64,000 bases of DNA from Phocaeicola coprocola DSM 17136. GTDB taxonomy: Bacteria; Bacteroidota; Bacteroidia; Bacteroidales; Bacteroidaceae. Under the pieces are notes generated by a model. The model made no database searches, was not told the DNA's origin, and saw only the letters and a program-made list of their open reading frames with translations. Both the position numbers and the translations under genes were made by a program. Positions 28,532 through 61,117 of the stretch are shown piece by piece. Each line of letters begins with the position of its first letter. Position 1 is the stretch's first letter. Where the stretch lies: the NCBI RefSeq assembly GCF_000154845.1, contig NZ_DS981430.1, forward strand, positions 1 to 64,000, written 5' to 3'.

Positions 28532-28539
28532 GAAAATTC

Positions 28540-31786: not shown

Positions 31787-31799
31787 AAATTACTTACGA

Positions 31800-32372: not shown

Positions 32373-32397
32373 TTTGGTAAATTTTGAATGTTAAATA

Positions 32398-33108: not shown

Positions 33109-33143
33109 AATGAATGCTTTGTTTAACTGAAAAGTTTACGCAA

Positions 33144-33402: not shown

Positions 33403-33427
33403 TTTTAAACCTCAAAAAAACAGAAAT

Positions 33428-33667: not shown

Positions 33668-33683
33668 TCGGGAGGACAGAATT

Positions 33684-33920
33684 ATGATAGCAAGATTTCA
33701 CTACAACATTCCGAGACATCACGGGAAATACGGAACAGCCGTTTCAGTTTTCAATAACAGAGAGGAAATGCGCAACTGCGAACAGCCGGTTGCATATTAT
33801 AAAACTTATAAGCATCAGACCCCTGACGAAGAACGGGTTTGCGATGGCGACCGCCAAATTGAGGACTTAAAAGCAAAAGTTTTGAAGAATTTCCCAAACG
33901 TTGAATTTATAAATCTTTGA
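33684..33920 (+). CDS. Small phage protein, unknown
   Basis: 78 aa. Start chosen at 33684 because GGGAGG lies 9 bp upstream, an unusually good Shine-Dalgarno for this genome. Contains HYNIPRHHGKYGTAVSVFNN and a C-terminal helix (DRQIEDLKAKVLKNF). Function unknown. Confidence 0.6.
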   Translation: MIARFHYNIPRHHGKYGTAVSVFNNREEMRNCEQPVAYYKTYKHQTPDEERVCDGDRQIEDLKAKVLKNFPNVEFINL

Positions 33921-33923
33921 ACC

Positions 33924-34043
33924 ATGAAAGAAATCATTGAAGCAGCTTATATGTCAGGCTTTGAACCAAGTTCGGAAGACTTGACAGAAACCGCCTTGTA
34001 TGAGGAAGCAAAGGCGTATTTAGAAAAATCAATTCAGTATTAA
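33924..34043 (+). CDS. Small acidic protein, 39 aa
   Basis: Reads MKEIIEAAYMSGFEPSSEDL and ends LEKSIQY; starts 3 bp after the previous stop. Acidic and helical. Its tight spacing supports translation, but it is too short for family assignment. Confidence 0.5.
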   Translation: MKEIIEAAYMSGFEPSSEDLTETALYEEAKAYLEKSIQY

Positions 34044-34063
34044 CCCAAATAAAATTTTCAAGT

Positions 34064-35218
34064 ATGGAAACAATGACAGTGACAAACGAAAAGACCCTGC
34101 AACAGGGTTTGAATGATGTTGTAATCAACAAGGTTCAGAGAATGATAGACGGTAAATCCGTTGGGGTTCAAGCTACAATGGAGCGTCTTATCAGCGAGGG
34201 AAAGATAGCGCAGGACTATATCGCCCCGATAGGCGTTAACCTGAGACAGAAAGACCACAGCCCCGTGATAACATTCAACGGGGGAGAACGTCTGATGATG
34301 AATATGCCTGACGGTCAGTTCTCACTCCATGATAACGCCATAGGTCAGCTTGCCGACAGAATGGGAGTTCCGCAACGTTATCTCAGACAGCTTGCGCAAG
34401 GGGCTACATGGGCGAAAAGCCTTGCCGCAGAAATCCTGAACGAGCATAGCGGTTGGACGGAAAGAAGCCGTGTTCTTGTCAGAACCGTAGGGGAACAGGT
34501 TCGGGGCGTTCTCTCTGACAGTTATCGCCGTTTGAACAGTGTTGAAATCCTGACCGCCTTTGTTCAGGAAGCGGCAAAGCAAGGAGCGGTTATTTCGGAC
34601 GCTTATATGAACGACACAAAGGTTTGGGCTGAAACAATCCTGCCACAGCCACTTGTTATCCCGACAGCGAAGAACGGCGATGTTATTATATTCGCTGGCG
34701 CACGCTTCTCAACTTCTGATTACGGGGACGGGGCGGTTGATATGCGGGCGTTTCTTTTGAACGGGGCTTGTCTCAATGGCATGGTTCGTGAAAGCGTGAT
34801 GAAACAGGTTCACTTGGGTTCTAAACTGCCGGACAACCTGAAACTATCCAACAAAACGTATGAACTTGACACGAAGACCACAGTTTCAGCGGTCAAAGAC
34901 TTGACAAAGGGACTGTTCAGCAAAGAGAACCTGATGAAGAAAGCCTACGAGATACAGGGGGCTTCCGAAATTGATGTTGACTTCGAGCATGAGTTGAAGA
35001 ACCTGACGAAGAACGGAAGTCTTCTGAAACAGGAGGGGAAAGAGGTTGAAAAGATATTGATGCGCAATGACCCAGATGACGGCGTTCAGGGCGGTTCAAC
35101 CCTTTGGAAACTCACTCAGGCAATCACGGCTCACGCCCGTGAACTGACACCCGAAAGAAGCCGTGAACTACATGAAATTTCAGGGGCACTTCTCAACCGA
35201 GTGAAATTACAAGCATAA
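34064..35218 (+). CDS. DUF932-like phage/plasmid protein
   Basis: 384 aa. Core resembles DUF932: LADRMGVPQRYLRQLAQGAT, VRTVGEQVRGVLSDSYRRLN and VDMRAFLLNGACLNGMVRES. The family is widespread on plasmids and phages and lacks an established function. It is the largest gene of the plus-strand island, expressed from the O4 promoter with the preceding small genes. Confidence 0.65.
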   Translation: METMTVTNEKTLQQGLNDVVINKVQRMIDGKSVGVQATMERLISEGKIAQDYIAPIGVNLRQKDHSPVITFNGGERLMMNMPDGQFSLHDNAIGQLADRMGVPQRYLRQLAQGATWAKSLAAEILNEHSGWTERSRVLVRTVGEQVRGVLSDSYRRLNSVEILTAFVQEAAKQGAVISDAYMNDTKVWAETILPQPLVIPTAKNGDVIIFAGARFSTSDYGDGAVDMRAFLLNGACLNGMVRESVMKQVHLGSKLPDNLKLSNKTYELDTKTTVSAVKDLTKGLFSKENLMKKAYEIQGASEIDVDFEHELKNLTKNGSLLKQEGKEVEKILMRNDPDDGVQGGSTLWKLTQAITAHARELTPERSRELHEISGALLNRVKLQA

Positions 35219-35277
35219 ATTAACAATCTCCCGTGAACCTGTCAAAAGCGGCTTTGCGGGCTTAAAAATAGAATGCA

Positions 35278-35469
35278 ATGAAAAAGACAGATTTGACATT
35301 TATCGGTATTGACTGTTGGGACAGACCCGTTTACAGAGACACCAACGGCAAATTATGGAAAGACATTACGCTTGGGAGCGATACGCCTGAATTATATTCA
35401 GCTTGCAATAATGACTTTGAGGGAGAACCTGATATGCCTATTGAAATGACTTATCCCGATTTTGAATAG
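35278..35469 (+). CDS. Small acidic protein, unknown
   Basis: 63 aa, KKTDLTFIGIDCWDRPVYRD followed by GKLWKDITLGSDTPELYSAC; a small beta domain with acidic end (EMTYPDFE). Preceded by a 59-bp gap. Not recognised; similar small proteins are common in Bacteroidales phages. Confidence 0.6.
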   Translation: MKKTDLTFIGIDCWDRPVYRDTNGKLWKDITLGSDTPELYSACNNDFEGEPDMPIEMTYPDFE

Positions 35470-35544
35470 TTGACATGATGTTTAACCACGCCCGACAGAG
35501 AGCCGTAAAAGCCCTGTGTCGGGTTTAATAACTGAGAAACAACG

Positions 35545-36024
35545 ATGACAGACGAAAAGAAATTTGAGTTCAATGAAGATATTGAAAATGATTGTTTAAT
35601 GACATGGAAGAACGCCCGGACTTTGGGACGTTATAAGGCTCTCTGTAATGAACGTGATTCGGTTGATGTGAAGAAATACGATTGCTTCTTCGCTTTCGGT
35701 AATGAATCATTCGCAAGGGGTATGAAAGGAATACGCCCTTTGAATGACGGGGAGAAGATTTACAGTTTCGGCGCAGGGGGCTATGGTACAAAAGACGGTA
35801 TAGAACGCCTGTTCAAGTTTTACGAAGACATGGAAGCCCGAATAAAGAATGAATGTGACCCGCAGGAGGTTTATTGCTATGAATACAATAACCATGAATG
35901 TTGCATTGCCTTTGACGGGGATATAGAAGCTATCAGGCTTGTTGCCGGGATATGGGGTGTAGAGACAGCGAAAACAATCAAACGGAGGTCGGCTTTTTAT
36001 AGGGTTGAAGAGTTTTTCAATTGA
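35545..36024 (+). CDS. Hypothetical protein of the plus-strand island
   Basis: 159 aa. Contains CFFAFGNESFARGMKGIRPL, SFGAGGYGTKDGIERLFKFY and CYEYNNHECCIAFDGDIEAI. Alpha/beta, Cys-rich for this genome. A CCCGACA / TGTCGGG hairpin precedes it (35487-35524 region) and a structured non-coding stretch follows. No known family. Confidence 0.6.
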   Translation: MTDEKKFEFNEDIENDCLMTWKNARTLGRYKALCNERDSVDVKKYDCFFAFGNESFARGMKGIRPLNDGEKIYSFGAGGYGTKDGIERLFKFYEDMEARIKNECDPQEVYCYEYNNHECCIAFDGDIEAIRLVAGIWGVETAKTIKRRSAFYRVEEFFN

Positions 36025-36033
36025 AAAAGTAAT

Positions 36034-36071
36034 GTTTTCTACGAGATAATATATGTTTTCTCGTAGAAAAC
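36034..36071. other. Perfect 13-bp inverted repeat after the 36024 stop
   Basis: GTTTTCTACGAGA / TCTCGTAGAAAAC with a 12-nt loop. The GTTTTCT half recurs at 36086. No T-run, so either a binding site or an RNA hairpin. Confidence 0.5.
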
Positions 36072-36085
36072 TCTGTTTAATTAGT

Positions 36086-36128
36086 GTTTTCTGCGCAAGA
36101 AACCTCTAAAGGAGAGGAAAGAAAAGAA
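36086..36128. repeat. 43-bp copy of part of the replisome-organizer gene
   Basis: 41 of 43 bases match the minus strand at 51793-51751, inside the DUF4373-like gene. The fragment can be read FSAQETSKGEERKE versus FSAQETPKGEESKE there. It looks like a recombination scar. Confidence 0.75.
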
Positions 36129-36138
36129 TATAGAAAAA

Positions 36139-36196
36139 ATACTACTAACGTAGTATAAAAAAGACCCTGACGGGTCAGGCGCACACGCCGTTTTTT
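36139..36196 (+). terminator. Stacked terminator hairpins
   Basis: ATACTAC-TAAC-GTAGTAT followed by A6; GACCC-TGAC-GGGTC; then GGCG-CACA-CGCC-G-T6 (36178-36196), the last a clear rho-independent terminator on the plus strand. GTCAGGCG (36175 region) and CGCCTGAC (36206 region) can also pair. They separate the first part of the island from the 36246 gene. Confidence 0.65.
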
Positions 36197-36245
36197 GGAG
36201 GGGTTCGCCTGACACAAGGTTTGGGGCGTTAAACAGAAAAAGACT

Positions 36246-36500
36246 ATGGCGAAAGAGCAAAAGACGATTTACCGGGTTCAGTTCAAAGAACCGCCATTGA
36301 ACGATGACGAAAGAACAGAGTTCTTCTTCACGTCACTTGCGGCGATTTATGATGTCTTCACGGCAGAACAAATCGGCTGTAAGGTCAATCGCTTGTACAA
36401 CATCGGTCTGCCTGACGGTACGCCGTATGACGGGAAACGTTGCCTGATAACTCAGGAGGCGATTCACAGTAAGGCGCAAAAAAGCCCGTTCACAGGCTGA
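36246..36500 (+). CDS. Small hypothetical protein
   Basis: 84 aa: QKTIYRVQFKEPPLNDDERT, FFTSLAAIYDVFTAEQIGCK, YNIGLPDGTPYDGKRCLITQ. Looks like a compact alpha/beta domain. It lies between the terminator cluster and the HigBA promoter. Not recognised. Confidence 0.6.
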   Translation: MAKEQKTIYRVQFKEPPLNDDERTEFFFTSLAAIYDVFTAEQIGCKVNRLYNIGLPDGTPYDGKRCLITQEAIHSKAQKSPFTG

Positions 36501-36621
36501 TGATGAAAACAAGCCCAAATAAGCCGATTTAAGACGTGATTTTAGGTTGGCTTATAACTTGTACGAAATTGGATGCGAAAATTCAATAGCGGGGCTAAAA
36601 ACGGGCAAATCGGGGTTGTTT

Positions 36622-36719
36622 GTGATTATGGTGTAATCATGTTGTTCGGTTTACCCGTTTGAGGCTTCAAAAAAATATTCGCTTTTTTTGCGAACTCTCA
36701 GAAAAAGAACTTATCTTTG
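36622..36719 (+). promoter_or_regulatory. Operator dyad O5 and higBA promoter
   Basis: Dyad GTGATTAT-GGT-GTAATCAT (36622-36640). Further down, TTTG (36687-36690) and TATCTTTG (36712-36719) are spaced like the -33 and -7 boxes of Bacteroidales promoters, 20 bp before the higB start. The dyad is too far upstream to block this promoter directly. Confidence 0.5.
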
Positions 36720-36739
36720 CCGTAGAAAAAGAACTGAAT

Positions 36740-37054
36740 ATGGAAATAATCTTCAATGAAGAATATCTTCGGGAAATGTATAATACCGGGCGAACGGATA
36801 AGAAACACCGTTTTCAGCCTCAAATTATACGGAAATATATTCGTGTGATAGATTTGATGCGGGACACTTCAAATGTCTTGGGGTTAATGCGATACAACGC
36901 ATTGAATTACGAGAAATTGAAAGACGATAAAGCGGGGCTTTCTTCTGTGAGAGTGAATGACCAATATCGCATTGAATTCGAGGAACATACCAAAGACGGG
37001 GAAACCGTTGCCACGATATGCAATATAACAGATTTGTCAAACCATTATAAATGA
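36740..37054 (+). CDS. higB: HigB-like mRNA interferase toxin
   Basis: 104 aa from ATG 36740 (start chosen after the TATCTTTG box; upstream frame extension is not protein-like). RelE/HigB fold: LMRDTSNVLGLMRYNALNYE, SSVRVNDQYRIEFEEH and ICNITDLSNHYK. HigB toxins cleave ribosome-bound mRNA. Toxin first, antitoxin second is the HigBA order. It can stabilise the prophage or block competing phages. Confidence 0.8.
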   Translation: MEIIFNEEYLREMYNTGRTDKKHRFQPQIIRKYIRVIDLMRDTSNVLGLMRYNALNYEKLKDDKAGLSSVRVNDQYRIEFEEHTKDGETVATICNITDLSNHYK

Positions 37055-37060
37055 TTGATT

Positions 37061-37405
37061 ATGATAACAATACCGGGAGTTGACCCAAAAATGATTGCTA
37101 ACAATCTTGAACCTGCGTTTCCCACGCATCCGGGGGAAATCTTGAAAGAAGAAATCGAATACAGGGGGATTTCTCAACGCAAGTTGGCAGAACGGATGGG
37201 CATAGGCTATTCTGTTCTGAATGAGATATTGAACGCCCGCCGACCTGTCACTGAAAAAACAGCGATGATGTTTGAGGCTGCGCTGGGGGTTGAAGCTGAA
37301 CCGTTGATGCGTCTTCAAATGAGATACAATGTGCGTATCGCCCAAAAAGACAAATCTTTCATGCAGCGTTTGGATAATATCCGCAAAATTGCCGCCGTTC
37401 TTTAG
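37061..37405 (+). CDS. higA: HigA-like antitoxin
   Basis: 114 aa from ATG 37061. XRE HTH with the HigA hallmark FPTHPGEILKEEIEYRGISQ, then RKLAERMGIGYSVLNEILNA and EKTAMMFEAALGVEAEPLMR. It neutralises HigB and represses its own promoter. 6 bp after higB. Confidence 0.85.
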   Translation: MITIPGVDPKMIANNLEPAFPTHPGEILKEEIEYRGISQRKLAERMGIGYSVLNEILNARRPVTEKTAMMFEAALGVEAEPLMRLQMRYNVRIAQKDKSFMQRLDNIRKIAAVL

Positions 37406-37524
37406 TGGCGTTGCTATTGCGCCCGAATGCCGGGCGATAATTTAAAACGTGAAGACTTACACCAATTTGGAAAGTAAAGCGTTTGTACGTCAAATTCGGA
37501 GAAAATAACTTAACAAATCAGAGT

Positions 37525-37746
37525 ATGGAAACAGTTTTTGATTATAACATAACAGACAAAGAGCGTGAAGACATCGGAATATCTGACAAGGAGCGTTATT
37601 TGGCTATTGTGGGGGAAGATACTGCAAATTTAGACCTTGCCACCCTTTTTCATACCCGAGGGGATAATAACAGGATGGCAAGGTACGCTGATAAACTTCC
37701 GCTTGATATGAAGTTGGATTTTTATCGGACGGTTACGCACCCTTGA
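37525..37746 (+). CDS. Small acidic protein at the end of the plus-strand island
   Basis: 73 aa from ATG 37525. ETVFDYNITDKEREDIGISD, ERYLAIVGEDTANLDLATLF. Acidic helical protein. Its 3' end overlaps the convergent head morphogenesis gene by 14 bp, so both stop codons sit in shared DNA. Not recognised. Confidence 0.55.
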   Translation: METVFDYNITDKEREDIGISDKERYLAIVGEDTANLDLATLFHTRGDNNRMARYADKLPLDMKLDFYRTVTHP

Positions 37747-39640
37747 TGTTTCTTAGTGTTTCTGCAAATTCGCTTGAAGACATTCTGAGATTTTTAACAA
37801 GTTCTTTTGCTGTTTTCAAGTCATATTTACTTTTCGCTTGAACAAACTTCACGATTTCCTCGTGGATTTCTTCATACGGGGTTTTCAGAATGATGTCTTT
37901 GAAATGGGCGTGCGCTTCTGCTTGTGTGACGTTTATATGCTTCAATAGGTTTTGAAAATTAGAAACGAAACGCCCATAACCATAACCTCGTTCAATGATT
38001 TCTTTAGCGTTGACCGCCTTTCCTCCGAGGCTTTTCACAAAGTCACGGTATGAATGACGTGCGCAGAACTGATTGATAGTTTCCATTGAACGGCTTCTTA
38101 AATCAGTTTTGTTTCTCAGGTTTTTCCAACCGACAGCTTGCGCATGGCGTATTTCATGCCATAGGCTTTCAAGGGCGTATTCTTGTTTGAATGTCATATC
38201 AACACCCGTGGATATGGCTTTTAAAGCCCCCTTGACTTCTTCAAGCGGGTTGAATATCTCGCCGCTGACAAGCCTGAATTCCCGGTTAGCAATCTTGATT
38301 GTGTTCCCCGCCATGTTATAAGCCCCTGTGGAGTTCAGATAAGACCGGGAGTTTGCCATAAAGAAACTTACGCCTTTAGCCCGTGTTATCACGACATCTG
38401 TCAACCCGCCGAGGAATAAATCGGGGTTGTTCTGGGCAAAGGTCTTAATCGTGTTCTGAACCTCTTTGCCCGTGATATAGTTCGGGTCTTTGAGTTTCAG
38501 AAAGGCTTCTTTCAGGTTCTCAATAAGCCCCGCATCCTGACCGCCTTTCAGTGTCCCCATGTTCTGAATGAACCTTTCAGGAATAAACTTCACGTTATCA
38601 CGGATGAAGTACGGAACAGATGACATACGTTTCGCCCGGTCTTCATTATCAGCAAGCCATTGTTTGAAATTGTCGGGTACATCTTTGACCTCGTTCTTGC
38701 TTCCTTGAACGGGTTCTTCTCCCGCCATAATACGGCGGTTGTCCTCTGCCATTTCTTCCTCGGTCTTCAATACTGTTTCGGCATGACAGCGGCAATGTGG
38801 ATGCCACCCTGTGAACTTGAACGTTTTCGGGTAAAGCCCTTTCAGTTCATCGCAAATATCCCTGAACGCAATGCCGTTCAAAGTGTGGTTATTACTCAGC
38901 TTGATTTCAATCCCGACAACGAAATCAAGGTCTTGCCAGCGGGTATAGTCAGCCGTTCGATAAGCGATGTTCGTTTCTGTGGCGGCGAGGCGGCGGGCGT
39001 TCTTGAATGAAGAACGGTAAACGCCCTGACCGGGATGAAAAGTCGCCGCCCGCTTGGATAGCTGCAAAACCCCGTGTTCATCCCTGACACGTCTGAACAG
39101 TTTGTCGGGGAATTTAAGGTATTGACGCAGTTCTTTTGTCATGTCCTCGGCAGATACGCCGTTTCTCAAACTGACATCAAGCCCGAGTTCTATTTCCTCC
39201 TTGAACTGGTTCGTATAGTTCCATACGCGGTCTGATAGGTTCAGCCCGTTTGTCTTTCTCTGAATGAACGCTTCACGGGCTTCATCGTTCGTGGAGAAAT
39301 AACGGCGGTATTTAGCCTGAGAGAGTTTTCCCACGTTATCCCCGAAGACCTGACGGGCGAGTTCGTTGTTCTTGTTGTTTGATAGCGTCCAAGCGGAGTT
39401 TATGCCGTTGACTATCGCCGCCGACAACCCGCTTTTTAGCCCCGACAACAGCTTTTCTATTCTTTTGCGTGTAATTGGATAGTCGCTGAAAGAAAAAAGC
39501 CTGTCGGGGTTAAAATCGCTTATGGTCGCACCGATACGTGCGGCTTCCTTGACAGCAGCCTCGTAAATCTGTTCTATGCGTTTGTCAAGGGCTGACAGGT
39601 CTTTCAGGTGTTGACGTTCCCATTTATTCAACCTTGCCAT
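37733..39640 (-). CDS. Minor head (morphogenesis) protein fused to a zincin-like domain
   Basis: 635 aa. The N-terminal half is the SPP1 gp7/Mu gpF-like head morphogenesis domain, ending around 300 with NNHTLNGIAFRDICDELKGL and GWHPHCRCHAE. The C-terminal part contains HEIRH at 495-499 (ALESLWHEIRHAQAVGW), the HExxH zinc-protease signature, followed by acidic and His residues further on. The family normally ends after the morphogenesis domain. The extra domain could process head proteins or be an injected effector. Confidence 0.8.
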   Translation of the reverse strand: MARLNKWERQHLKDLSALDKRIEQIYEAAVKEAARIGATISDFNPDRLFSFSDYPITRKRIEKLLSGLKSGLSAAIVNGINSAWTLSNNKNNELARQVFGDNVGKLSQAKYRRYFSTNDEAREAFIQRKTNGLNLSDRVWNYTNQFKEEIELGLDVSLRNGVSAEDMTKELRQYLKFPDKLFRRVRDEHGVLQLSKRAATFHPGQGVYRSSFKNARRLAATETNIAYRTADYTRWQDLDFVVGIEIKLSNNHTLNGIAFRDICDELKGLYPKTFKFTGWHPHCRCHAETVLKTEEEMAEDNRRIMAGEEPVQGSKNEVKDVPDNFKQWLADNEDRAKRMSSVPYFIRDNVKFIPERFIQNMGTLKGGQDAGLIENLKEAFLKLKDPNYITGKEVQNTIKTFAQNNPDLFLGGLTDVVITRAKGVSFFMANSRSYLNSTGAYNMAGNTIKIANREFRLVSGEIFNPLEEVKGALKAISTGVDMTFKQEYALESLWHEIRHAQAVGWKNLRNKTDLRSRSMETINQFCARHSYRDFVKSLGGKAVNAKEIIERGYGYGRFVSNFQNLLKHINVTQAEAHAHFKDIILKTPYEEIHEEIVKFVQAKSKYDLKTAKELVKNLRMSSSEFAETLRNIKGA

Positions 39641-39848
39641 TGTTTACCTCCCGTTTGATGAAGTGTTCGCACTGAGGGGCTGAAAGAAAGCGACAGAACT
39701 TGCCTCCCGTGTAGAACGGGCAACGGCACATGAACGGTTTCCCGTTTGCTCCTATCTCATGCCAATCATAGCTGTGCCCGCAGTCACGGCATTGAAATTT
39801 CGGTTGTTCTTCGGTCTTTGGCGGTTGTCTTCTTCTTGATATAGCCAT
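39624..39848 (-). CDS. Small zinc-ribbon protein
   Basis: 74 aa with CRDCGHSYDW, then CRCPFYTGGKFC and CEHF: at least six Cys plus His suitable for zinc binding. It overlaps the head morphogenesis gene by 17 bp and follows the portal gene, so it is in the packaging operon. Function unknown. Confidence 0.65.
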   Translation of the reverse strand: MAISRRRQPPKTEEQPKFQCRDCGHSYDWHEIGANGKPFMCRCPFYTGGKFCRFLSAPQCEHFIKREVNNGKVE

Positions 39849-39865
39849 AATCTCCCCCTTTCTTG

Positions 39866-41254
39866 TTATTCAGTCATTTCAAGGTTATCGTACATTTCCT
39901 CTTCCTTAATTTCTTTTAGCGTCTTGTCAACGTCATCAGATTGCCCGTAACGCTCAATGGATTCACGCTGAGACATAAGAGGCTTGCCACCGTTGGCTGT
40001 CATCAGGTTGTTGATGTCATCCTTTTCATCCGATATTGTGAACGGGGTAATGATGATTTCAGCTTTCAGAGCGTCAATGTCGGCGGCGTAGCTTTCCCCG
40101 AAGACAATCTTTGCGTAAGCCTTGATAACGTTTATTTCACGGTCGAAGAACTCAATCAGCGGTCCTTTTTCATCGTTGACTTTCAGTTGTGCATCAATGA
40201 ACAGTTGTTTCCGGCTCTCTCCTGACAAGGCGACTTGCGACATCTTCTCATAAGACCAATCAGGGAGTTGAAGCATTGTGAAATAGAGGTTTCTCAACTC
40301 TGAGACGTGGAATTTCAGGTTCTCAACGGCTTGTTGCCAAGTGACATACTGCGCCGTTGAGCCTTTCGGGTATTGCATGACGGCACGGGCTTCCTTATCA
40401 GGGCTTTTTTCATCGCCGTAACTTATCGCTTCATCAGCGAAGACACAGAACAGTGGCTTTGAGTTCTCACGGATGTAATTACCGTTACGGCTCAAAGACC
40501 ATTCAATTTCGTAAACGGTATCTGACGTGAATTCCCAAATCGGGAAAGGACGGCAGGCGTAAATTGCGGGGATTTTCAAAAGCGTTATATCTTCATTCTC
40601 AATCTCCTGCCATGAACCGCTTTCAGAAGACCATTTGATGTGCTTGTTTGCCGTGTATGCGTCAAAGAACTTCACGTTCTTTCTCCCTTTCTTCCTTTGA
40701 TAGCCGACTGACATTGCTATCATGTCGCCGTATTCATCAAAAAGGGGGTATAGGTCATCGCCGAGCATGGGGGAGAACGTGCGACAACGGATTTTCAGGG
40801 GGCTTTTTCTTCCGTAAAGCGTGTTGTTCTGTTCAAGGGCGTACCATAACGTCATAATCTCGCAGCCGGCAAAGAACCTGTTCACACGGTCTATGTCAAC
40901 GCTGTCGATGCGGTTCTTGTCGAGGACGCTTGTGATGAATGTCGCCACTTCTTTCTGTTTGTCGTTCTCAGGCTTGAACACACGCTTGACAGGTATAGCC
41001 GTAACCAGCTCTGTCATTCTCTTTGATGCGAGTTTCTGAAAGCCGAGCGCAATGCGGGTCACGGGCTGAATCCCGTCTTCGTTCACGATGTCGGGGTATT
41101 TCTGTCTATCCATGACGGGATGAAACTTCGGGTTATACTCCATTTCAAGCCCTTTTCTGCCGCCCCAAACAGGGACGTTCACGGTCTTTTCACTCAGGGC
41201 GGCTATCTTCTGTTCTGCCGTCATGTCCGAATTTAAAATTTCTTCGATTGTCAT
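39866..41254 (-). CDS. Portal protein
   Basis: 462 aa. Resembles SPP1 gp6-type portals: RIALGFQKLASKRMTELVTA near the start, a stem/wing region around 200-330, and KLKVND-like crown helices (RKQLFIDAQLKVNDEKGPLI). The dodecameric portal is the DNA channel at the head vertex. It lies 33 bp after the terminase gene. Confidence 0.85.
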   Translation of the reverse strand: MTIEEILNSDMTAEQKIAALSEKTVNVPVWGGRKGLEMEYNPKFHPVMDRQKYPDIVNEDGIQPVTRIALGFQKLASKRMTELVTAIPVKRVFKPENDKQKEVATFITSVLDKNRIDSVDIDRVNRFFAGCEIMTLWYALEQNNTLYGRKSPLKIRCRTFSPMLGDDLYPLFDEYGDMIAMSVGYQRKKGRKNVKFFDAYTANKHIKWSSESGSWQEIENEDITLLKIPAIYACRPFPIWEFTSDTVYEIEWSLSRNGNYIRENSKPLFCVFADEAISYGDEKSPDKEARAVMQYPKGSTAQYVTWQQAVENLKFHVSELRNLYFTMLQLPDWSYEKMSQVALSGESRKQLFIDAQLKVNDEKGPLIEFFDREINVIKAYAKIVFGESYAADIDALKAEIIITPFTISDEKDDINNLMTANGGKPLMSQRESIERYGQSDDVDKTLKEIKEEEMYDNLEMTE

Positions 41255-41287
41255 TTTTGATATTTTTTGAATTGAACATTCTGTTTG

Positions 41288-42970
41288 TTATCTCCGTATC
41301 ATTTTCGCAATTCTGTTCACGTTGATAGGTTTCGCATACCGAACGGGATAGAACGTGTTAGCCAAAGCGTCAAACTTATCAGGGCTTCGCCCGAGGCGTT
41401 CTTTGATGTCTTCTTTCGGCTCAATATAAAGTTTGCCGTTTGACTTTACCGAGAACTTTATTTCCGTGGCTTCTTCGTCAAACTTGTCATCCGGAGGCAG
41501 CATGGCTCCCGTGTTGTTTCTTGGGTTCAGCCAATCACGGACAGCCCAAAACAGATAAGCACGCATATTGAAGAACTTGTTTTGCCCCGTGATGTCACTC
41601 AGTTCACGCCCGTTAGGGGTCTTTGCGCTCTCTGAATACTTGCAACTCAGGATATAATGGGGCTCGTCTTCAAGTTCAACGCAGCGGCTATAAACGCCCG
41701 CACCCTCTCCGATTGTGTCAATGCTGACGTAAAGACCGATGTTCTGTCGGCGGGCAACCATGATTTTACCAGCCACTTTCATGTGGTCTGCCACGCCGCC
41801 TGAATTGTGTGTGTCAAAGGAAGCCACCCAGTTGTCACGGCGAAGAACATAGCACGTTGCGTCACGCCCCATGCCCGCCACGTCAACACCGAGAATATTG
41901 AGGTCAGCCCGAAGCGGTTCACGCCCTTTGGCTTGTTTCCAACGTTCATGCGCTTCTTCAAGCCATTGACGGGGGATAAGCGTGTCTTCATCGACTTTCG
42001 GGAACAGACCGAGGACTTTCTTTCTGAACAGGTCTTCCGGGCGATACCATTGTCCCTCGAACTCAAAGTCATCCATTTCTGATATGATTTCATCAGGGGA
42101 TATTTTCTCACACCAATTTTCAAGTTTATCCAACACCCAATCGTAATCAACCTGACCGGGGATAATAATCTTCTTGCTCGCGATATTCGGGGCTGTCAGG
42201 CTGTTCAGACGGTATTTGTGCCAACGGTCGCCTTTCTGAGACTTGGCGGCATAACCTACCGTCTTGTTTGGGTTGAAGACAAGAAGAATACGGCTGTCGC
42301 CCTGCAGGTTTCCCTCTATGGCGGCAAACGTGTCATCCCCGATACCTGTTGCCTCGGTTACGACAAACATCGTGTGAACCGCATGAAAGCCTGACCACGC
42401 TTCATGGTTGTGTTCATCAGCCTTGAAGCCCGTCAGAAACCATTCATCGTTGTTTGTTCTTATGTCATAGGCGTTCAGTTTTCCGATAAGTTCAACGCCA
42501 CGGGCTTTGGCTCTGTTGAAAAGGCGGCTTATCTCAGGCATCATAATGTTTTTTACTTGACGGTCTGTTGGAGCAGTCAAAGCGACCTTGGTGTTTTCAA
42601 CAAGTTCAATTTCTCCCAAACTGTTCTTTCTCCAACGAGGTGTGAGATACAAGAAACAGATAGCGGCACAAGCCGCCACGAAGTCTTTTCCACGGGCTGT
42701 CCCCGATGCAACCGATGTTCGCCTGTTGTATTGAACGCTTGACAGTATTTCTTGCTGTTCTTTGTCAAGGGTCACTCCGAGGGCTTCACGGACAAACCTG
42801 TTCCAGTCTGCCCGCCATAGGTTCATCAGTTCAAGACCTTTCTTGCGGAGAATATCTTTATTCTGTTTCTTCATTGAGTTATTTTTTGCTGATTCGCCCT
42901 GTGCCGGGCTTTCGTTTTCAAATGGTAACTTTATACGAGTGAATGATTTCAGAGCCACATTCGGGCGCAA
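41288..42970 (-). CDS. terL: Terminase large subunit
   Basis: 560 aa. ATPase: a variant Walker A SVASGTARGKDF and FVVTEATGIGDDTFAAIEG as the Walker B/C-motif region. Nuclease: LGVDVAGMGRDATCYVL with the first Asp of the RNase H-like fold, and a C-terminal SPDKFDALANTF motif. It drives packaging and cuts concatemers. A shorter start at 42874 is possible. Confidence 0.9.
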   Translation of the reverse strand: MRPNVALKSFTRIKLPFENESPAQGESAKNNSMKKQNKDILRKKGLELMNLWRADWNRFVREALGVTLDKEQQEILSSVQYNRRTSVASGTARGKDFVAACAAICFLYLTPRWRKNSLGEIELVENTKVALTAPTDRQVKNIMMPEISRLFNRAKARGVELIGKLNAYDIRTNNDEWFLTGFKADEHNHEAWSGFHAVHTMFVVTEATGIGDDTFAAIEGNLQGDSRILLVFNPNKTVGYAAKSQKGDRWHKYRLNSLTAPNIASKKIIIPGQVDYDWVLDKLENWCEKISPDEIISEMDDFEFEGQWYRPEDLFRKKVLGLFPKVDEDTLIPRQWLEEAHERWKQAKGREPLRADLNILGVDVAGMGRDATCYVLRRDNWVASFDTHNSGGVADHMKVAGKIMVARRQNIGLYVSIDTIGEGAGVYSRCVELEDEPHYILSCKYSESAKTPNGRELSDITGQNKFFNMRAYLFWAVRDWLNPRNNTGAMLPPDDKFDEEATEIKFSVKSNGKLYIEPKEDIKERLGRSPDKFDALANTFYPVRYAKPINVNRIAKMIRR

Positions 42971-52236: not shown

Positions 52237-53613
52237 TTATAGGGTTGTAAGAATTGATTTGCGGAGTTTCTCGTTCCTTGCGTTCCATTCAAAGGAGCGT
52301 ATCATCCATTGACGGTAATCAAGGGGAATGTCCGCTATTCTGTTCCCCTTATATTTGCCGAAAGGCATGATTTCAATCGGGGCTTCTGCCCGAGCGTCTA
52401 TCGCCCGTGTGTCTTCACGGGTGTAATGACCGATGTCCGAAATGGGTATGCCTGACAGAAGCCGCCCGCCCGTTCCGAACATTCGCCACATTTTACCCTG
52501 CTCAAACGTGATGTCTTCAACACGCCCGAAACGTTCAACATTGCCGCCGAGGTCAACAATCAAAGCGTCCGTTTTCTCGGGGTCAATACGTGTCGCACGT
52601 CCGATAATCTGATAATACAAGGCGATAGAAGCCGTAGAAACGCCTAAAACGATGCAGTCGATACCTGTATAGTCAAAGCCTGTCGAAAGCACTCTGACGT
52701 TAAATATGACCCGTATTTCGCCCGCCCTGAAACGTGTGATGACCTGAGAACGTTCCGTCTTATCCATTTCCCCGTAAATCACGGCTGAGTTTGGGTATTT
52801 CTTTGAAAGCGTTATAGCGTCCTCAACAGAGGGAACGAAGACAAGAATATGGCGGCGGTCTGAATGTCTGTCAAGGGCTTGAACAATCTGTTCAGACCCT
52901 CCGTTCGCATCATACGCCCGCTGAACGCTTTCTTCCGTGTATTCAGATTTTGAACTGTTGAAGACAAGAAGACTGCTGTCGAATCCCGTTGTCTCATATT
53001 GAAGCGGAGACCAAAAGCCGAGGCGAACCATTTCAGCCACCTGTCCGACATGAATGATTTCTTTGAAGAAGTTGCCTTTTTTTGAACGGGAGGTCAGCAT
53101 GACAAGTTTTGAGAAGTTCTGCCCGTCCTTATCCCGGTTCGTTTGCAGCTTCACGGGGGTAGCCGTGATTCCGAGAACGTGGGTTATACCGCTTTCTTTC
53201 AGGAAACGCCCGAGCATACTGTCAGCCTCACGGGGATAAAGGTGCGCTTCATCAATCAACATTTTTGTAAACCCGAGAGACTTGAATTTAGCCCCGAGGC
53301 TCTTTATTGAGCCTATCGTAGCGTAAGTTATATGGGCGATGTCCTTTCGCCCGAAACTTGCGCTGTAAATACCCGCATTCAAGGCGAAATTCCCGCATAG
53401 CGAGCAATATTTCAAATAGTTTTGTTCGAGCAACTCTTTCGAGGGTTGAAGAACAATCATTTTATCGTTGCTGTTCTTTGCGACAAAAGCCGTCAGTATT
53501 GATTTTCCCCAAGCGGTCGGGAGAACAATCAAACTCGGCTTCGGTTTCTTTTCCGTGAAGAACTGAATAGCCTTGTTTATCGGCTCTGTTTGGTTTTCTC
53601 TGAGTGTTATCAT
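52237..53613 (-). CDS. SF2 DEAD/DEAH helicase
   Basis: 458 aa. Walker A LPTAWGKS (31-38), DEAH (121-124), GITATP motif III, RVLSTGFDYTGID and IIGRATRIDP as motifs V and VI. RecG/UvsW-like phage helicases help recombination-dependent replication. The last 70 residues (MPFGKYKGNRIADIPLDYRQ) form a putative quorum/DUF3820-like tail found on replication proteins. Promoter and O7 upstream. Confidence 0.85.
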   Translation of the reverse strand: MITLRENQTEPINKAIQFFTEKKPKPSLIVLPTAWGKSILTAFVAKNSNDKMIVLQPSKELLEQNYLKYCSLCGNFALNAGIYSASFGRKDIAHITYATIGSIKSLGAKFKSLGFTKMLIDEAHLYPREADSMLGRFLKESGITHVLGITATPVKLQTNRDKDGQNFSKLVMLTSRSKKGNFFKEIIHVGQVAEMVRLGFWSPLQYETTGFDSSLLVFNSSKSEYTEESVQRAYDANGGSEQIVQALDRHSDRRHILVFVPSVEDAITLSKKYPNSAVIYGEMDKTERSQVITRFRAGEIRVIFNVRVLSTGFDYTGIDCIVLGVSTASIALYYQIIGRATRIDPEKTDALIVDLGGNVERFGRVEDITFEQGKMWRMFGTGGRLLSGIPISDIGHYTREDTRAIDARAEAPIEIMPFGKYKGNRIADIPLDYRQWMIRSFEWNARNEKLRKSILTTL

Positions 53614-54008: not shown

Positions 54009-54950
54009 TTATTTTAACAGGAAGCGGCGTGCCCCCTGAACCTCCCTTGAGAACTCGGAAACCATTTCAGGGTGTGCGGCTTTGAAAGCCTTGTCATCAA
54101 ACTTCATTGACGGCTTGGGGGCTTTCCATGTGGCGAGCGTCTGACCTCCGTAGCTGATAGCCTCTGCGTCTCCGAAGCCGAGTTTAATGCGTTCTTCCAA
54201 CTCTGTCTTGATTTCATCAAGTTTATCCATCTCTTTCTTGACTTCTTTCAACTTTTGATAGTCTGAGAAAATAGCGTCATTCACTTCAACGATTTTCCCG
54301 TCCGTGTGACGGTTGAATTTCAGCAGAATGTCTTGAACCGATGTCGCTTCGGGTTCTTTCTTCCCTTGAATGTTGTCACGCCAAAACTTTTCAACTTCTT
54401 CAACTATCCATGCGTAGAAGTCAGGAACAAAAGACAGGTCTTTGTAGCCGAACTCACGTCCTGAACAGAGCCAAGCCAAACTGCCCTCTTTCAATTCTGC
54501 AACCCCGAGTTGATATTGAACCTGACAGAACCAATGCTTCGGCAGATCGTCAGAGGAAATTTTCATTTGGGTGGTCTTACATTCCAAAACACCTTTGTTT
54601 GAAGCGTTCTTCTTTTCTCCTGCGAGCCAATATGTACGGTCAGGGCTGACCTGTAGATAGGGGCGTTCATTATTTCTTATCAGCCAGTCCCCGGCTGATG
54701 ACTTGATTATTTCACGTCCCGTATCGTCATGCCAAAACTGCGCAACAGCGTCTTCGAGATAATGACCCGCTTTCATAGCAAATGTCTCTGTTTTAGGTTC
54801 ATCAAGACCAACCTTGCGTCTCCAAAGCTGATAAGGGGTTTCCCACGGGTTCAACCCGAGAATAGTTGCAACCTCACTGCTCCCGATACCTGACTTTCTA
54901 TGTTCAAGCCATTCGTTACGGTCTTTCGGTCTGATAATCGTGTAGCTCAT
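54009..54950 (-). CDS. YqaJ-family recombination exonuclease
   Basis: 313 aa. Lambda-exonuclease fold: GIGSSEVATILGLNPWETPY (21-40), E66, D104 (QVSPDRT), E123-C-K125 (VLECKTTQ) and CQVQYQLGVAEL. It resects double-strand ends for single-strand annealing. The C-terminal helices (KKEMDKLDEIKTELEERIKL) may bind the annealing partner, likely the 55912 product. Overlaps the upstream gene by 4 bp. Confidence 0.88.
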   Translation of the reverse strand: MSYTIIRPKDRNEWLEHRKSGIGSSEVATILGLNPWETPYQLWRRKVGLDEPKTETFAMKAGHYLEDAVAQFWHDDTGREIIKSSAGDWLIRNNERPYLQVSPDRTYWLAGEKKNASNKGVLECKTTQMKISSDDLPKHWFCQVQYQLGVAELKEGSLAWLCSGREFGYKDLSFVPDFYAWIVEEVEKFWRDNIQGKKEPEATSVQDILLKFNRHTDGKIVEVNDAIFSDYQKLKEVKKEMDKLDEIKTELEERIKLGFGDAEAISYGGQTLATWKAPKPSMKFDDKAFKAAHPEMVSEFSREVQGARRFLLK

Positions 54951-55296: not shown

Positions 55297-55905
55297 TCAC
55301 TTGCGGATAAGACAGAAGTATGCCCAGATGTTGATGAACTGTTTCCCGCAGTAAACGGCGAGCGTGTCGCTCTTTAAGCAAAGGCGAGAACCGAAGGCCG
55401 CAATCGTACTCGAGGGGGCGTAATGCGAACCCGCACAAGCGAGACCCGCATAACCTGTTTGATATTCGCCTGTTGACATTAAGCGGCGGTCTGTTTTTTC
55501 GTCTTCATCCATGTCATTGATTTCTTTCTGAGTATAGAGCCAAAACCAAGGATAATAACGCCATTCGTCCTCTGTGAATTGAGGCTCCCAGCCCTCGTTC
55601 AAGGCGGCGCAGATGATACGGAGTTTGAGGTATGCAAGTATGTCCGTATCGTTTTTATTGTTTTCGTGGATGTTGTTTGTATAACCGTTATATGACCTTA
55701 CAAATGGGTGTTCTTCCCCAAGTTCACGGCAAGCGTCTTCAAAGGTCTTTACACGCTCCATGATGTCTTTGGGTTTGAATGTATCTTCCCCGAAAACCTT
55801 GTGCATTTCGTTCTGAACCTGTTCTTTTGAAATTGCCGGGTAATTGGTTAATACCTGATAAAGTTCCCGCAAATCGTCTCTTTTGACTTCAATTACTTCT
55901 TTCAT
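55297..55905 (-). CDS. Second DGR target, early-region protein with variable C-terminal segment
   Basis: 202 aa. Residues 1-125 are alpha-rich (VLTNYPAISKEQVQNEMHKV, YLKLRIICAALNEGWEPQFT) with the aromatic segment WRYYPWFWLYTQKEIND. Residues about 152-177 are VR2 (YAGLACAGSHYAPSSTIAAF), followed by SRLCLKSDTLAVYCGKQFIN and a hydrophobic end. The VR lies in a region resembling the C-terminal lectin-like edge, but the protein is not fused to a tail module and sits between recombination genes. Its role is unknown; it may meet a varying host or rival partner inside the cell. Confidence 0.8.
   Translation of the reverse strand: MKEVIEVKRDDLRELYQVLTNYPAISKEQVQNEMHKVFGEDTFKPKDIMERVKTFEDACRELGEEHPFVRSYNGYTNNIHENNKNDTDILAYLKLRIICAALNEGWEPQFTEDEWRYYPWFWLYTQKEINDMDEDEKTDRRLMSTGEYQTGYAGLACAGSHYAPSSTIAAFGSRLCLKSDTLAVYCGKQFINIWAYFCLIRK
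55360..55372. other. Hairpin just downstream of VR2
   Basis: GAGCG-TGT-CGCTC (plus strand), 3 bp beyond VR2. It resembles the AGCGT-GTT-ACGCT stem beside VR1. Such a stem is absent at the TR. Confidence 0.55.
55376..55452 (-). repeat. DGR variable repeat VR2 (remote)
   Basis: 77 bp aligned without gaps to TR 18668-18744. 15 substitutions, every one at a TR adenine. Similarity stops sharply upstream (at 55453), so VR2 is shorter than VR1. Confidence 0.93.
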
Positions 55906-55911: not shown

Positions 55912-56820
55912 TTACTTTTTAGATGTTGATGTTTTCTTTGACTTTTCTTCTTTGATTTCACCCGTTTCAGGGTCAACGTTGGCGGGTATCTCTCCCGTTG
56001 CTTGTGCGATAGCCGCTGCCGCCTTGTCAGCCGCCGAAGCGGTCTTTTTATTGGCTTCTTCTTGTGCTTTGGCTTCAAGTTGTGGTTTGACAAAGGTTTC
56101 CTGAACGGTTGTCGTTCCCTCTTTGATTGCGTTCCAAGTGGCTCTCAGTTCAAACAGACGTTCTTTGTCTATGTCTGCGATAGTCTTGATACCGAGATAT
56201 TGGCAAATCATGGCTTCCGTCACACCCGCTTTTGCGAAGTTTGCCAAACAGTTCTTGCGTGATGTCTCAACGTCAATTGCCTGACCGAGCGCAACCTTTT
56301 TAACTTCATTGATGACACGTTTTGTAACGGCTTTCGGTATGACCGCCAAGACTGCATTTCTGAAAGCGATTGAAGAGGCAGCGTTGCCTGTTACAACCTG
56401 CATATCGTCACTGTATGTTTTGCCCGTTTTCGTTGTTATCCGGCGGTCAACGGTCTTGCATACGGCGTAGTTTGTTTCAAGGTCATGGCAGACAGCCTGA
56501 GCCGTGATTTTACGCCCGTCATTCCCGATTATACGGGTCTGAACTCTCAGGTTTCCCCAAGCCCCTGCGATAATTTCTGCCATACGGATTGAAAGCCCTT
56601 CAATGGTGTTGTCATTACCGTTTGCGTCCTTTCTTCTGAGAACATAGAAGCAGTCTTCTGCCGTTTCCTTATCCATTGTGGCATAGGTGGCGATTTTGTT
56701 TAAGACTGTATTCAGGTCACGGGGATATTGCTTCGCCGTAGCAATCTGAATGTCAATTTCTGACCGGGTAATTCCCGCAAGCATTTCAGCTTGTTTGATT
56801 TCAATAATGTCATTTTCCAT
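55912..56820 (-). CDS. Probable single-strand annealing / recombination protein
   Basis: 302 aa. IEGLSIRMAEIIAGAWGNLR and SSIAFRNAVLAVIPKAVTKR resemble RecT/Erf-region annealing proteins, and TVQETFVKPQ leads to a Lys/Ala-rich tail. Partner of the YqaJ exonuclease by position. The specific family could not be fixed by eye. It heads a gene block that includes the second DGR target. Confidence 0.6.
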   Translation of the reverse strand: MENDIIEIKQAEMLAGITRSEIDIQIATAKQYPRDLNTVLNKIATYATMDKETAEDCFYVLRRKDANGNDNTIEGLSIRMAEIIAGAWGNLRVQTRIIGNDGRKITAQAVCHDLETNYAVCKTVDRRITTKTGKTYSDDMQVVTGNAASSIAFRNAVLAVIPKAVTKRVINEVKKVALGQAIDVETSRKNCLANFAKAGVTEAMICQYLGIKTIADIDKERLFELRATWNAIKEGTTTVQETFVKPQLEAKAQEEANKKTASAADKAAAAIAQATGEIPANVDPETGEIKEEKSKKTSTSKK

Positions 56821-59907: not shown

Positions 59908-61074
59908 TTATTCCTTGTTGTCATCAGCCCCGAAAATATCGGGTATCATCGCAACCGCCTCCTGCTTTTTCTTATCAAGGATTTTCGCGTAAATCTGTGT
60001 TGTTGAAAGTTCCTTGTGCCCGAGAAGTTTCTGAACCGTGTAGATTTCTGCGCCGAGGTCAAGCATGAGGACAGCGAATGTGTGCCGCCCTGAATGGAAC
60101 GTGATGTCTTTTGTTATTCCCGCCCTATTTGCCCACATCCTTAACTCAGCTATCATATAGGCACTGTATTTGAAACCGACAAAAACCCGGTCATCAGGTT
60201 CACGGCGAACCCCCATGTATTGAACCGCTTGTTTATTGATGTCAAGGTATTCTTGCCCGCCCGTCTTCTTCTGTTTGAAGATTATCCGGGTAAAGTCTCC
60301 TTGCTGCTGAACTTCACGCCAACGGAGTTTCTCAATGTCTGATTTGCGAAGACCTGTCAGGCATGAGAACATGAACGCATTTTTCAAGGCTGGGTATTTG
60401 CATTGGGCAGCAGCCATCGCCTTGACTTCTTCCAATGTCAGATAACTTCTTTCCGTTTCAGCTTGTTTGAAACCCTCAATGCCACGAAGTGGGTTATGCG
60501 GTATTATCCTGTCTTCAAATGCTTGGTTGATGCAGGCACGGAGTTTGTTGAAGTAACTGACCTTGCTGTTTTGTGAAAGCGGCTTTGTCACTTCTTCCGT
60601 TGTGATAATCTTCCGTTTGTCTCTGCAACGGGCGTTCTTGTCAAGGTGTTCACGAAAACCGATTATCCATTCAGGTGTTATGTCCTTGAATGTGGTGTTA
60701 GGCTTGCAATACCGTTCAAGGTGTTTGAGGCAGCTATACCAATTACCCCAGTTTCCCCGGCTCTCGGGGTTGCCGTGACGTTTCTCACACATAGCCCGGT
60801 AATAGTCAAGAAAGTTCGTTTCAAGTTTGTAGGCGGCGTTAAAACCGTATTCTCCGTTTTGAAGTTCAACAACCCGCTTGGCTTTTATCGCCTCGGCGAG
60901 TTGAAGCGTCTGACGGTTCTTCTCCTTATCCTTTCTGTTCGTTTCAGGGATAAGATAGAGTTTCAAGTATTCATAAGACCTTTTCCCGTTCAGGTAGATG
61001 TCGAGGTATAACGTGATATTCCCCGAAGCGGTCTTTCTCTGTCTGAGCCTTATCGGTTCTTTCGATTTTCCCAT
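59908..61074 (-). CDS. int: Tyrosine recombinase (prophage integrase)
   Basis: 388 aa from ATG 61074 (GKSKEPIRLRQRKTASGNIT); the longer frame to 61116 would run through arm repeats. Arm-binding domain, SAM-like domain (HLDKNARCRDKRK), then catalytic motifs CLTGLRKSDIEKL, SGRHTFAVLMLD, LLGHKELSTTQIYAKI with all of R, H-x-x-R, H and Y present. It should act on the mnmE 3' att site. Arm repeats lie within 5-43 bp of its start. Confidence 0.9.
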   Translation of the reverse strand: MGKSKEPIRLRQRKTASGNITLYLDIYLNGKRSYEYLKLYLIPETNRKDKEKNRQTLQLAEAIKAKRVVELQNGEYGFNAAYKLETNFLDYYRAMCEKRHGNPESRGNWGNWYSCLKHLERYCKPNTTFKDITPEWIIGFREHLDKNARCRDKRKIITTEEVTKPLSQNSKVSYFNKLRACINQAFEDRIIPHNPLRGIEGFKQAETERSYLTLEEVKAMAAAQCKYPALKNAFMFSCLTGLRKSDIEKLRWREVQQQGDFTRIIFKQKKTGGQEYLDINKQAVQYMGVRREPDDRVFVGFKYSAYMIAELRMWANRAGITKDITFHSGRHTFAVLMLDLGAEIYTVQKLLGHKELSTTQIYAKILDKKKQEAVAMIPDIFGADDNKE

Positions 61075-61078
61075 AATT

Positions 61079-61117
61079 TTTGTTGCTTTTGTTGCTGTTT
61101 TCGATACGAGCAACAAA
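61079..61117. repeat. Integrase arm-type repeats, right end
   Basis: AGCAACAAA is inverted at 61079-61087 and 61088-61096 (tandem) and direct at 61109-61117, the mirror image of the left-end arrangement. The stretch 61118-61263 between here and mnmE holds no gene; it is A/T-rich attachment DNA. Confidence 0.7.

What the first reader, a model, noticed from the sequence alone, without database searches (positions are those of the whole stretch)
55297..55905. The same DGR template feeds a second, remote target in the early gene region
A 77-bp VR2 lies 36 kb from the TR and differs from it at 15 sites, all TR adenines. Its gene sits between recombination genes and has no visible tail-anchoring module. 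DGR targets are usually surface adhesins; a diversified protein made early inside the cell would be new, for example one meeting varying defence proteins. It might also be a virion protein encoded out of place.
Basis: partly seen in the sequence, partly recalled or inferred. Interest (0 to 1): 0.92.

Follow-up and report, generated by a model that had tools for sequence, protein, structure and literature searches.

The report
Phage diversifies an early, non-tail protein
A gut-bacterium prophage appears to use its built-in mutation machine not only on a tail protein but also on a small protein encoded among its DNA recombination genes; the second target is real and varies in nature, the idea was already published for a related phage, and what this protein binds is still unknown.

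Summary
VR2 (55376-55452, minus strand) matches the TR over 77 nt with 15 differences, all at TR adenines (21 of 77 TR bases are A; P about 1.5e-11), and lies 36 kb away. It changes in nature: a near-identical contig differs from the window at 46 of 6044 positions, 12 of them inside VR2, all at TR adenines; in six LoVEphage-like genomes the TR is identical and every VR2 difference is at a TR adenine. The gene is of PHROG 11581 (28 of 28 homologues tested match). A template with mismatches mostly at adenines was found for 18 of 28 locus sets and 7 of 7 further contigs. The gene recurs among recombination and replication genes. The concept is not new: Benler et al. 2021 (PMC8008677) reported a distal, probably non-structural second target in Quimbyvirus, and PMC12629997 (2025) in four prophage species. 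Added here: a defined family, natural variation in several lineages, a recurrent recombination/replication setting, and an unrelated parallel in Bacuni phage. The function, a variable binder of host defence proteins, is inferred, not shown.

The parts
55297..55905 (-). second DGR target gene, 202 aa, PHROG 11581 (unknown function)
   Evidence: translation; phrog_11581 E=2e-83; no Pfam, NCBIfam or PADLOC hit
55376..55452 (-). VR2: 77 nt, 15 differences from the TR, all at TR adenines; codes for residues 152-177
   Evidence: allele differs in L001 at 12 sites
18664..18782 (-). template repeat (TR)
   Evidence: in the VR2 frame no stop codon is reachable by changing As
19278..19396 (-). VR1 near the 3' end of the tail target
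   Evidence: 17 of 17 mismatches over 119 nt at TR A
19263..20699 (-). first DGR target, tail protein (PHROG 5302)
   Evidence: phrog_5302 E=1.7e-152
17491..18516 (-). DGR reverse transcriptase
   Evidence: phrog_1423 E=1.1e-107; PF00078 E=3.3e-17
18824..19192 (-). 122-aa ORF between VR1 and TR, PHROG 19665 (unknown); possible accessory gene, not shown
   Evidence: position only
55912..56820 (-). gene directly upstream of the VR2 gene, PHROG 3657 (function unknown; annealing protein is my guess)
   Evidence: 6 nt from the VR2 gene
54009..54950 (-). YqaJ-type recombination exonuclease
   Evidence: PF09588 E=7.8e-22, phrog_434 E=4.7e-81
52237..53613 (-). DNA helicase of the same cassette
   Evidence: phrog_16, PF00271
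51256..52224 (-). O-like replication initiation protein
   Evidence: phrog_345
59908..61116 (-). integrase at the early end of the prophage
   Evidence: phrog_1
22250..42970 (-). structural module (TerL 41288-42970, portal 39866-41254, major head 30695-31786, tape measure 23661-27662, Dit-like 22250-23176); also holds some + strand ORFs

Best explanation
The prophage carries one DGR (RT, one TR) with two targets. SHOWN from sequence: copies of the TR, changed at adenines, form the 3' part of both the tail gene (VR1) and, 36 kb away, the gene 55297-55905 (VR2), and VR2 alleles differ between near-identical phages at TR adenines. INFERRED from setting: the VR2 protein is made early, inside the cell, with the recombination/replication genes, and is not a virion part. 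INFERRED, weaker: its constant part presents a variable surface that binds a host (or rival element) protein that itself varies, most likely a defence factor acting on replicating or recombining phage DNA, so that the phage population always holds variants that fit. VR1 would then adapt entry and VR2 survival after entry.
For: TR/VR2 relation. Natural variation: L001, 12 of 46 differences inside VR2; six LoVEphage-like genomes, TR identical in 6 of 6, five VR2 alleles, every pairwise VR2 difference at a TR A, for example 18 of 18 against 2 in the other 490 nt of the gene; pairs with 14, 14, 9, 10 and 9 differences in the 84-nt VR stretch and none elsewhere in the gene (L220/L221, L222/L224, L234/L240, L234/L243, L240/L243). 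Conservation of the arrangement: template found for 18 of 28 sets and 7 of 7 contigs. Setting: within 5 kb of the gene in 117 family loci (near-duplicates included) YqaJ 37, upstream-gene homologue 34, helicase 29, O-like protein 22; this phage's TerL, portal, head and tape-measure proteins 0. In 35 loci lacking the YqaJ and upstream-gene markers, 127 neighbours include RecT 10, metal-dependent hydrolase 16, NinB 4, DnaD/DnaC-like loaders. No signal-like hydrophobic stretch in the first 40 residues of the aligned members by a simple hydropathy window. Independent case: Bacuni_F1 has an unrelated target in its replication module, 16 of 17 mismatches at TR A.
Against: No expression timing, localisation or binding data. 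In 10 of 28 sets no template was shown: 3 with only sister VR-like copies, 5 with nothing found, 2 whose match did not reach the VR. L125 keeps a VR-like pattern although its genome gave no RT match. 20 of 49 close pairs do not differ in the VR; 16 of them are identical throughout, 4 have 2 differences elsewhere. The VR shares similarity with tail PHROG 5302 (E=0.00068), and the Versailles homologue is annotated 'tail protein'. No C-lectin fold could be shown: the VR part of the model has pLDDT about 48-66 and no PDB chain passes E 0.001. The neighbours in this window are recombination genes, not known counter-defence genes. No PADLOC hit, though that library covers defence rather than counter-defence.
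Confidence: 0.55

Rival explanations
1. Virion or tail-associated protein encoded out of place: a small adhesin or injected protein made with the early genes and packaged.
For: VR part resembles the tail target's VR; Versailles homologue annotated tail protein; most known phage DGR targets are tail proteins (PMC8144416, passages seen).
Against: Homologues recur in recombination/replication cassettes; no TerL, portal, head or tape-measure homologue of this phage within 5 kb (such markers diverge fast, so this is weak; TerL is 5.1 kb away in L216/L217 and a head protein 6.0 kb away in L252). No head or tail family among the 25 of 78 PHROGs listed for 127 neighbours nor among the 25 Pfam families. 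The tail similarity covers only residues 143-180.
Confidence: 0.15
2. Host-factor adaptor: the variable loop docks the phage replication/recombination machinery onto replication or repair proteins of different host species, so VR2 widens host range inside the cell.
For: Neighbours are replication initiators, helicase loaders and recombinases; LoVEphage was induced from several species (PMC12629997, passage seen).
Against: Core replication proteins change slowly (general knowledge), so near-random diversification seems excessive; no binding data.
Confidence: 0.15
3. Inter-phage or lysogeny role: the variable protein binds proteins of superinfecting phages or of co-resident prophages.
For: Carried by prophages and phages with integrases.
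Against: Embedded with replication and recombination genes rather than with repressor genes.
Confidence: 0.1
4. By-product: a captured VR that the DGR keeps rewriting without benefit.
For: Retrohoming is thought to need mainly sequence match at the 3' end (recalled); function unproven.
Against: Frame kept, TR codons in this frame cannot give stops, rest of the gene constant (0 of 477-507 differences while the VR has 9-14), arrangement kept in many lineages; the member L117, whose genome gave no RT match, no longer shows the VR pattern, but L125, likewise without RT match, still does.
Confidence: 0.05

Closest known systems
Quimbyvirus / LoVEphage DGR with distal second target (Benler et al. 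2021, PMC8008677)
   Same: One RT, one TR, tail target plus distal non-structural target. The LoVEphage early gene is a homologue of P0001 (42% identity over query residues 52-202) and its VR differs from its TR at 10 sites, all adenines. Both phages match the same B. dorei prophage record according to passages of PMC8525569 and PMC8008677, so this gene is very probably the published second target (inference).
   Different: Neighbours there are methyltransferases, a tRNA ligase and other genes; here a YqaJ exonuclease, helicase and replication genes.
Four inducible gut prophage species with a second distal VR (PMC12629997)
   Same: Second VR away from the RT cassette
   Different: Reported near counter-defence genes; the target family is not named in the passages I saw
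Bacuni phages of B. uniformis (PMC8143477; MT635598)
   Same: Distant second target inside the replication module, 16 of 17 mismatches at TR A
   Different: Lcl_C/DUF1566-type domain, below the Pfam cut-off; no significant similarity to P0001; authors read both targets as adhesins
Bordetella phage BPP-1 Mtd (recalled; mentioned in passages of several papers)
   Same: Mutagenic retrohoming mechanism
   Different: Single tail target beside the RT

Membership tests
Diversity-generating retroelement | reverse transcriptase near the TR | tested here: met
   phrog_1423, PF00078; YADD in the translation (motif recalled)
Diversity-generating retroelement | TR/VR pair with mismatches confined to TR adenines | tested here: met
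   VR2 15 of 15, VR1 17 of 17
[quoted passage not shown]
   VR2 codes for residues 152-177 of 202 and 25 residues follow; VR1 ends a few codons before the stop
Diversity-generating retroelement | diversification of the VR | tested here: met
   allele differences between near-identical phages; not observed in a growing culture
Diversity-generating retroelement | fixed TR/VR differences at the 3' end (IMH-like, recalled from BPP-1) | tested here: inconclusive
   CAC and CTA in TR versus CGC and CTT in five of five VRs of this lineage; role not tested
Diversity-generating retroelement | hairpin downstream of the VR as in BPP-1 (recalled) | tested here: inconclusive
   stem of 5 or more in 19 of 77 distinct tails versus 228 of 1792 control windows; not conserved
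Diversity-generating retroelement | Avd-type accessory gene | not tested
   122-aa ORF in place, PHROG 19665 unknown
PHROG 11581 | profile match over the full length | tested here: met
   E=2e-83, residues 3-202; 28 of 28 aligned homologues match
Distal non-structural DGR target (Quimbyvirus kind) | second VR outside the structural module | tested here: met
Distal non-structural DGR target (Quimbyvirus kind) | counter-defence genes as neighbours | tested here: inconclusive
   recombination neighbours here; a methyltransferase gene lies about 10 kb away (43835-45391)
C-type lectin fold DGR target | C-lectin fold around the VR | tested here: inconclusive
   model pLDDT 82 overall, about 48-66 in the VR part; no PDB match; compact homologue likewise
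Phage tail protein | similarity to a tail protein outside the VR | tested here: not met
   the only tail PHROG hit covers residues 143-180
Phage tail protein | presence in the virion | not testable with these tools
   needs proteomics

The most novel reading that the evidence does not exclude
Bacteroidales phages have, at least twice and with unrelated target proteins (PHROG 11581 and the Bacuni Lcl_C-type protein), coupled one template to two tasks: a tail protein that meets varying receptors, and an intracellular variable binder, made with the replication/recombination genes, that meets varying host defence proteins; in effect a phage-encoded, antibody-like counter-defence repertoire.
Probability: 0.4. 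Interest if true: 0.88.

Novelty: new member of a known kind. Interest (0 to 1): 0.62.

Why it matters
DGRs are usually read as tools for changing surface contacts. A recurrent family of small variable proteins encoded in the replication/recombination module of gut phages suggests that the same machinery also acts on something met inside the cell. The family, its natural alleles and cultured carriers (LoVEphage-like phages) make the question of what it binds directly testable, and a partner found with it could reveal host defences through their phage counterpart.

Tried and rejected
Conserved hairpin downstream of VR2 as a target signal: a 5-bp stem exists in the window, but such stems occur in 19 of 77 distinct tails against 228 of 1792 control windows; rejected as a conserved feature. 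Structure as guide to function: the AlphaFold model of P0001 from 57 sequences and of the compact homologue L301 from 37 sequences gave no PDB match at E 0.001 and no convincing VIA-align row; the viral library gives uncharacterised phage proteins at the top, one of the six under E 0.001 crAss-like. Sequence profile against solved structures: three matches, best E 0.21, taken as chance. Pfam on 57 members: scattered weak hits, best 0.0038. PADLOC: nothing; NCBIfam: only hits far under their cut-offs. Viral contigs with the LoVEphage protein: no relative. Megablast of 52-60 kb against phages: no match. Early idea that VR2 is a stray, inactive copy: rejected. Idea that the association is with one recombination system only: rejected, since YqaJ and RecT/hydrolase cassettes both occur.

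Rows dropped or limits before counts: tblastn hits ending before query residue 150 were skipped (so BT-TP2 and L126 were not tested); fifteen loci were given, with extra tiles for all but L111 and L121; for L028, L029, L111 and L121 the whole genome was searched afterwards, for cr60_1 only 16 kb of its 100 kb. In one search only pairs under 6% diverged outside the VR were kept (49 pairs); several zero pairs look like one phage assembled twice. In one search identical tails and short ORFs were left out. In one search, 35 loci were chosen by hand among those lacking the YqaJ and upstream-gene markers. One search kept 80 of 230 relatives. The 7 contigs were picked by comparing contig names by eye. 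In the LoVEphage set one VR1 (OY731444) has a 3-base length difference and off-adenine changes at its 5' edge, and all five VR1 copies differ from the TR at the last, non-A base of the window used.

Full report
WHAT IS THERE. The window (contig C87 of a 4.3-Mb genome in 90 contigs) holds a prophage transcribed mostly on the minus strand: integrase 59908-61116, early genes down to about 44 kb, terminase 41288-42970, portal, head, tape measure 23661-27662, Dit-like 22250-23176, and the DGR at 17.5-20.7 kb. The DGR has a reverse transcriptase (17491-18516), a TR (18664-18782) and VR1 (19278-19396) near the end of a tail protein of PHROG 5302. The third copy found by repeat search is VR2.

OBSERVATION CHECK. 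VR2 (55376-55452) matches the TR over 77 nt with 15 differences, all at TR adenines; 21 of 77 TR bases are A, so the chance of this under random placement is about 1.5e-11, and outside TR and VR1 no place in the window comes near (61 of 77 against 77 of 77). Among 43 minus-strand ORFs of 150 or more residues only the two target genes have such a partner. VR1 and VR2 use the same frame; in it the TR has seven AAY codons in the stretch shown, and no change of As can give a stop. Four of the 15 differences are shared by the five VRs of the lineage that I compared and look fixed, two of them at the 3' end, as one would expect of a template with a disabled homing signal (interpretation, from recall of BPP-1).

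VR2 VARIES IN NATURE. L001, an IMG/VR contig, is 99.2% identical to the window over 6044 bp. Of 46 differences, 12 lie between 55395 and 55452, all at TR adenine sites; 34 are spread over the rest; within the gene 12 of 13 are in VR2. L002 (84% identical protein) has another allele, with 15 of 15 mismatches at adenines of the TR on contig L030 from the same metagenome (that both contigs belong to one phage is inferred). In six LoVEphage-like genomes the TR is identical in 6 of 6, VR1 has five alleles in the five that could be read, and VR2 five alleles in six; all VR2 differences in the 15 pairs are at TR adenines (one pair has none). Among 49 pairs of family genes under 6% diverged outside the VR, 29 differ in the VR, five of these with 9 to 14 VR changes and no other change in the gene; of the 20 without VR change 16 are identical throughout and 4 have 2 changes elsewhere.

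THE FAMILY AND ITS SETTING. P0001 belongs to PHROG 11581, as do all 28 homologues of alignment A2. 20 of 399 genomes of the host's family carry a match, the own genome included, and a scan of IMG/VR gave 230 relatives, 80 kept. I looked for a template in 28 locus sets. 18 have one: with mismatches only at template adenines in window, LoVEphage, Versailles, L002+L030, L103, L104, L110, L118, L116, L122, L127, L028 and L029 (10 of 10 and 12 of 12); with 16 of 18, 15 of 16, 11 of 12, 11 of 13 and 14 of 15 at adenines in L112, L114, L119, L123 and L124. Three show only sister VR-like copies (L113, L120, L121; for L121 also genome-wide). Five show nothing: cr60_1 (16 of 100 kb searched), L111 (genome-wide), L115 (33.8-kb contig), and L117 and L125, whose genomes gave no RT match. 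Two could not be tested (BT-TP2, L126). A further 7 of 7 contigs that were in both the RT list and the family list have a template, with 0 or 1 mismatch off adenine. By my reckoning from the coordinates, the gene is 16 to 45 kb from the template in 13 of the 18, about 5 kb in L110 and L118, next to the RT in L103 and L104, and on a separate contig in L002+L030.

In 117 family loci (near-duplicates included) I counted homologues of this phage's proteins within 5 kb of the gene: YqaJ exonuclease 37, upstream gene 34, helicase 29, O-like protein 22, RT 10, and none of terminase, portal, head or tape-measure proteins. The last point is weak, since such markers diverge fast; TerL is 5.1 kb away in L216/L217 and a head protein 6.0 kb in L252. 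In 35 loci lacking the YqaJ and upstream-gene markers, 127 neighbouring proteins matched RecT (10), a metal-dependent hydrolase (16), NinB (4) and DnaD/DnaC-like loaders; no head or tail family is among the 25 of 78 PHROGs that the tool lists, nor among the 25 Pfam families. LoVEphage differs: methyltransferases, tRNA ligase and a restriction-alleviation gene. Versailles has the gene beside NinB, a recombination protein and, a little further, a replisome organiser.

STRUCTURE. The AlphaFold model of P0001 is helical with short strands, pLDDT 82, but about 48-66 around the VR. No solved structure matches; the viral library gives uncharacterised phage proteins. A compact homologue gave the same picture. 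So the C-type lectin domain that Benler et al. report for the Quimbyvirus targets could not be confirmed for this protein.

AN UNRELATED PARALLEL. Bacuni_F1 has two DUF1566-annotated proteins. One lies beside the RT; the other (22548-23222), which I take to be the distant target of the paper although the ORF numbers differ, lies next to a cytosine methyltransferase and, one small ORF away, DNA polymerase A. It matches the TR with 16 of 17 mismatches at A, shows no significant similarity to P0001 and carries an Lcl_C-type domain below the Pfam cut-off. The authors report that phages F1 and F2, which share a host strain, differ mainly in the secondary VR (PMC8143477, passages seen), which I take to be this one. 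That would fit a target that does not set adsorption, but it is two phages only.

WHAT IS KNOWN. Seen as passages: PMC8008677, PMC12629997, PMC8143477, PMC10743442, PMC8144416, PMC8525569, PMC9727126, PMC10053308. [quoted passage not shown] PMC12629997 reports a second distal VR in four prophage species; PMC8144416 notes that its survey would not detect remote targets. In the listings of searches and in these passages I saw no description of an association with recombination cassettes or of the PHROG 11581 family; preprints and most subscription journals are not held, and supplementary files were not open to me.

MECHANISM. Shown: one template, two rewritten genes. Inferred from setting: early, intracellular action. 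Inferred further: a variable binder in conflict with host defences. As judgements I put about 0.97 on the DGR target itself, 0.8 on a non-virion protein and about 0.5 on counter-defence. The alternatives are a host-factor adaptor, an inter-phage factor and a packaged protein.

VERDICT. A true second DGR target that varies in nature, of a kind published in 2021, with a wider and more regular distribution than the passages I saw describe. The open question is its partner.

Noticed in passing
window 18664-18782 versus VR1, VR2: Four TR adenines (GCA, ACC, CAC, CTA codons) carry the same substitution in the five VRs compared; two of the changes are synonymous. They look like fixed TR/VR differences rather than mutagenesis.
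   Followed up: partly
L306 (Bacuni_F1) 22548-23222: A second, A-specific DGR target lies in the replication module near DNA polymerase A; unrelated to P0001.
   Followed up: yes
L103 8895-9786, L104 8529-9458, L296-L303, L305: Compact members of the same family sit close upstream of the RT; in L103 there are two in tandem, both with VRs of one TR.
   Followed up: partly
L121 10913-11650, L123 9836-10576, L125 9789-10583: Family members with an extra C-terminal part of roughly 110 residues or more after the VR domain.
   Followed up: no
window 13730-14664: Repeats with 444-nt spacing (300 nt identical in two copies) inside a 1368-aa tail-like protein gene.
   Followed up: no
window 36086-36128 and 51751-51793: 43-nt inverted repeat, 95% complementary, 15.6 kb apart.
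   Followed up: no
window 33428-37746: Block of + strand ORFs inside the head module, including a 384-aa protein of PHROG 1362; possible cargo.
   Followed up: no
window 6457-7596 and 9654-10727: Second integrase and an endonuclease-type gene beyond the tail end of the prophage; perhaps another element.
   Followed up: no
L028: A MAG labelled Clostridia carries a 60% identical VR2 gene with the same recombination cassette and its own TR and RT; may be a misbinned Bacteroidales phage.
   Followed up: partly
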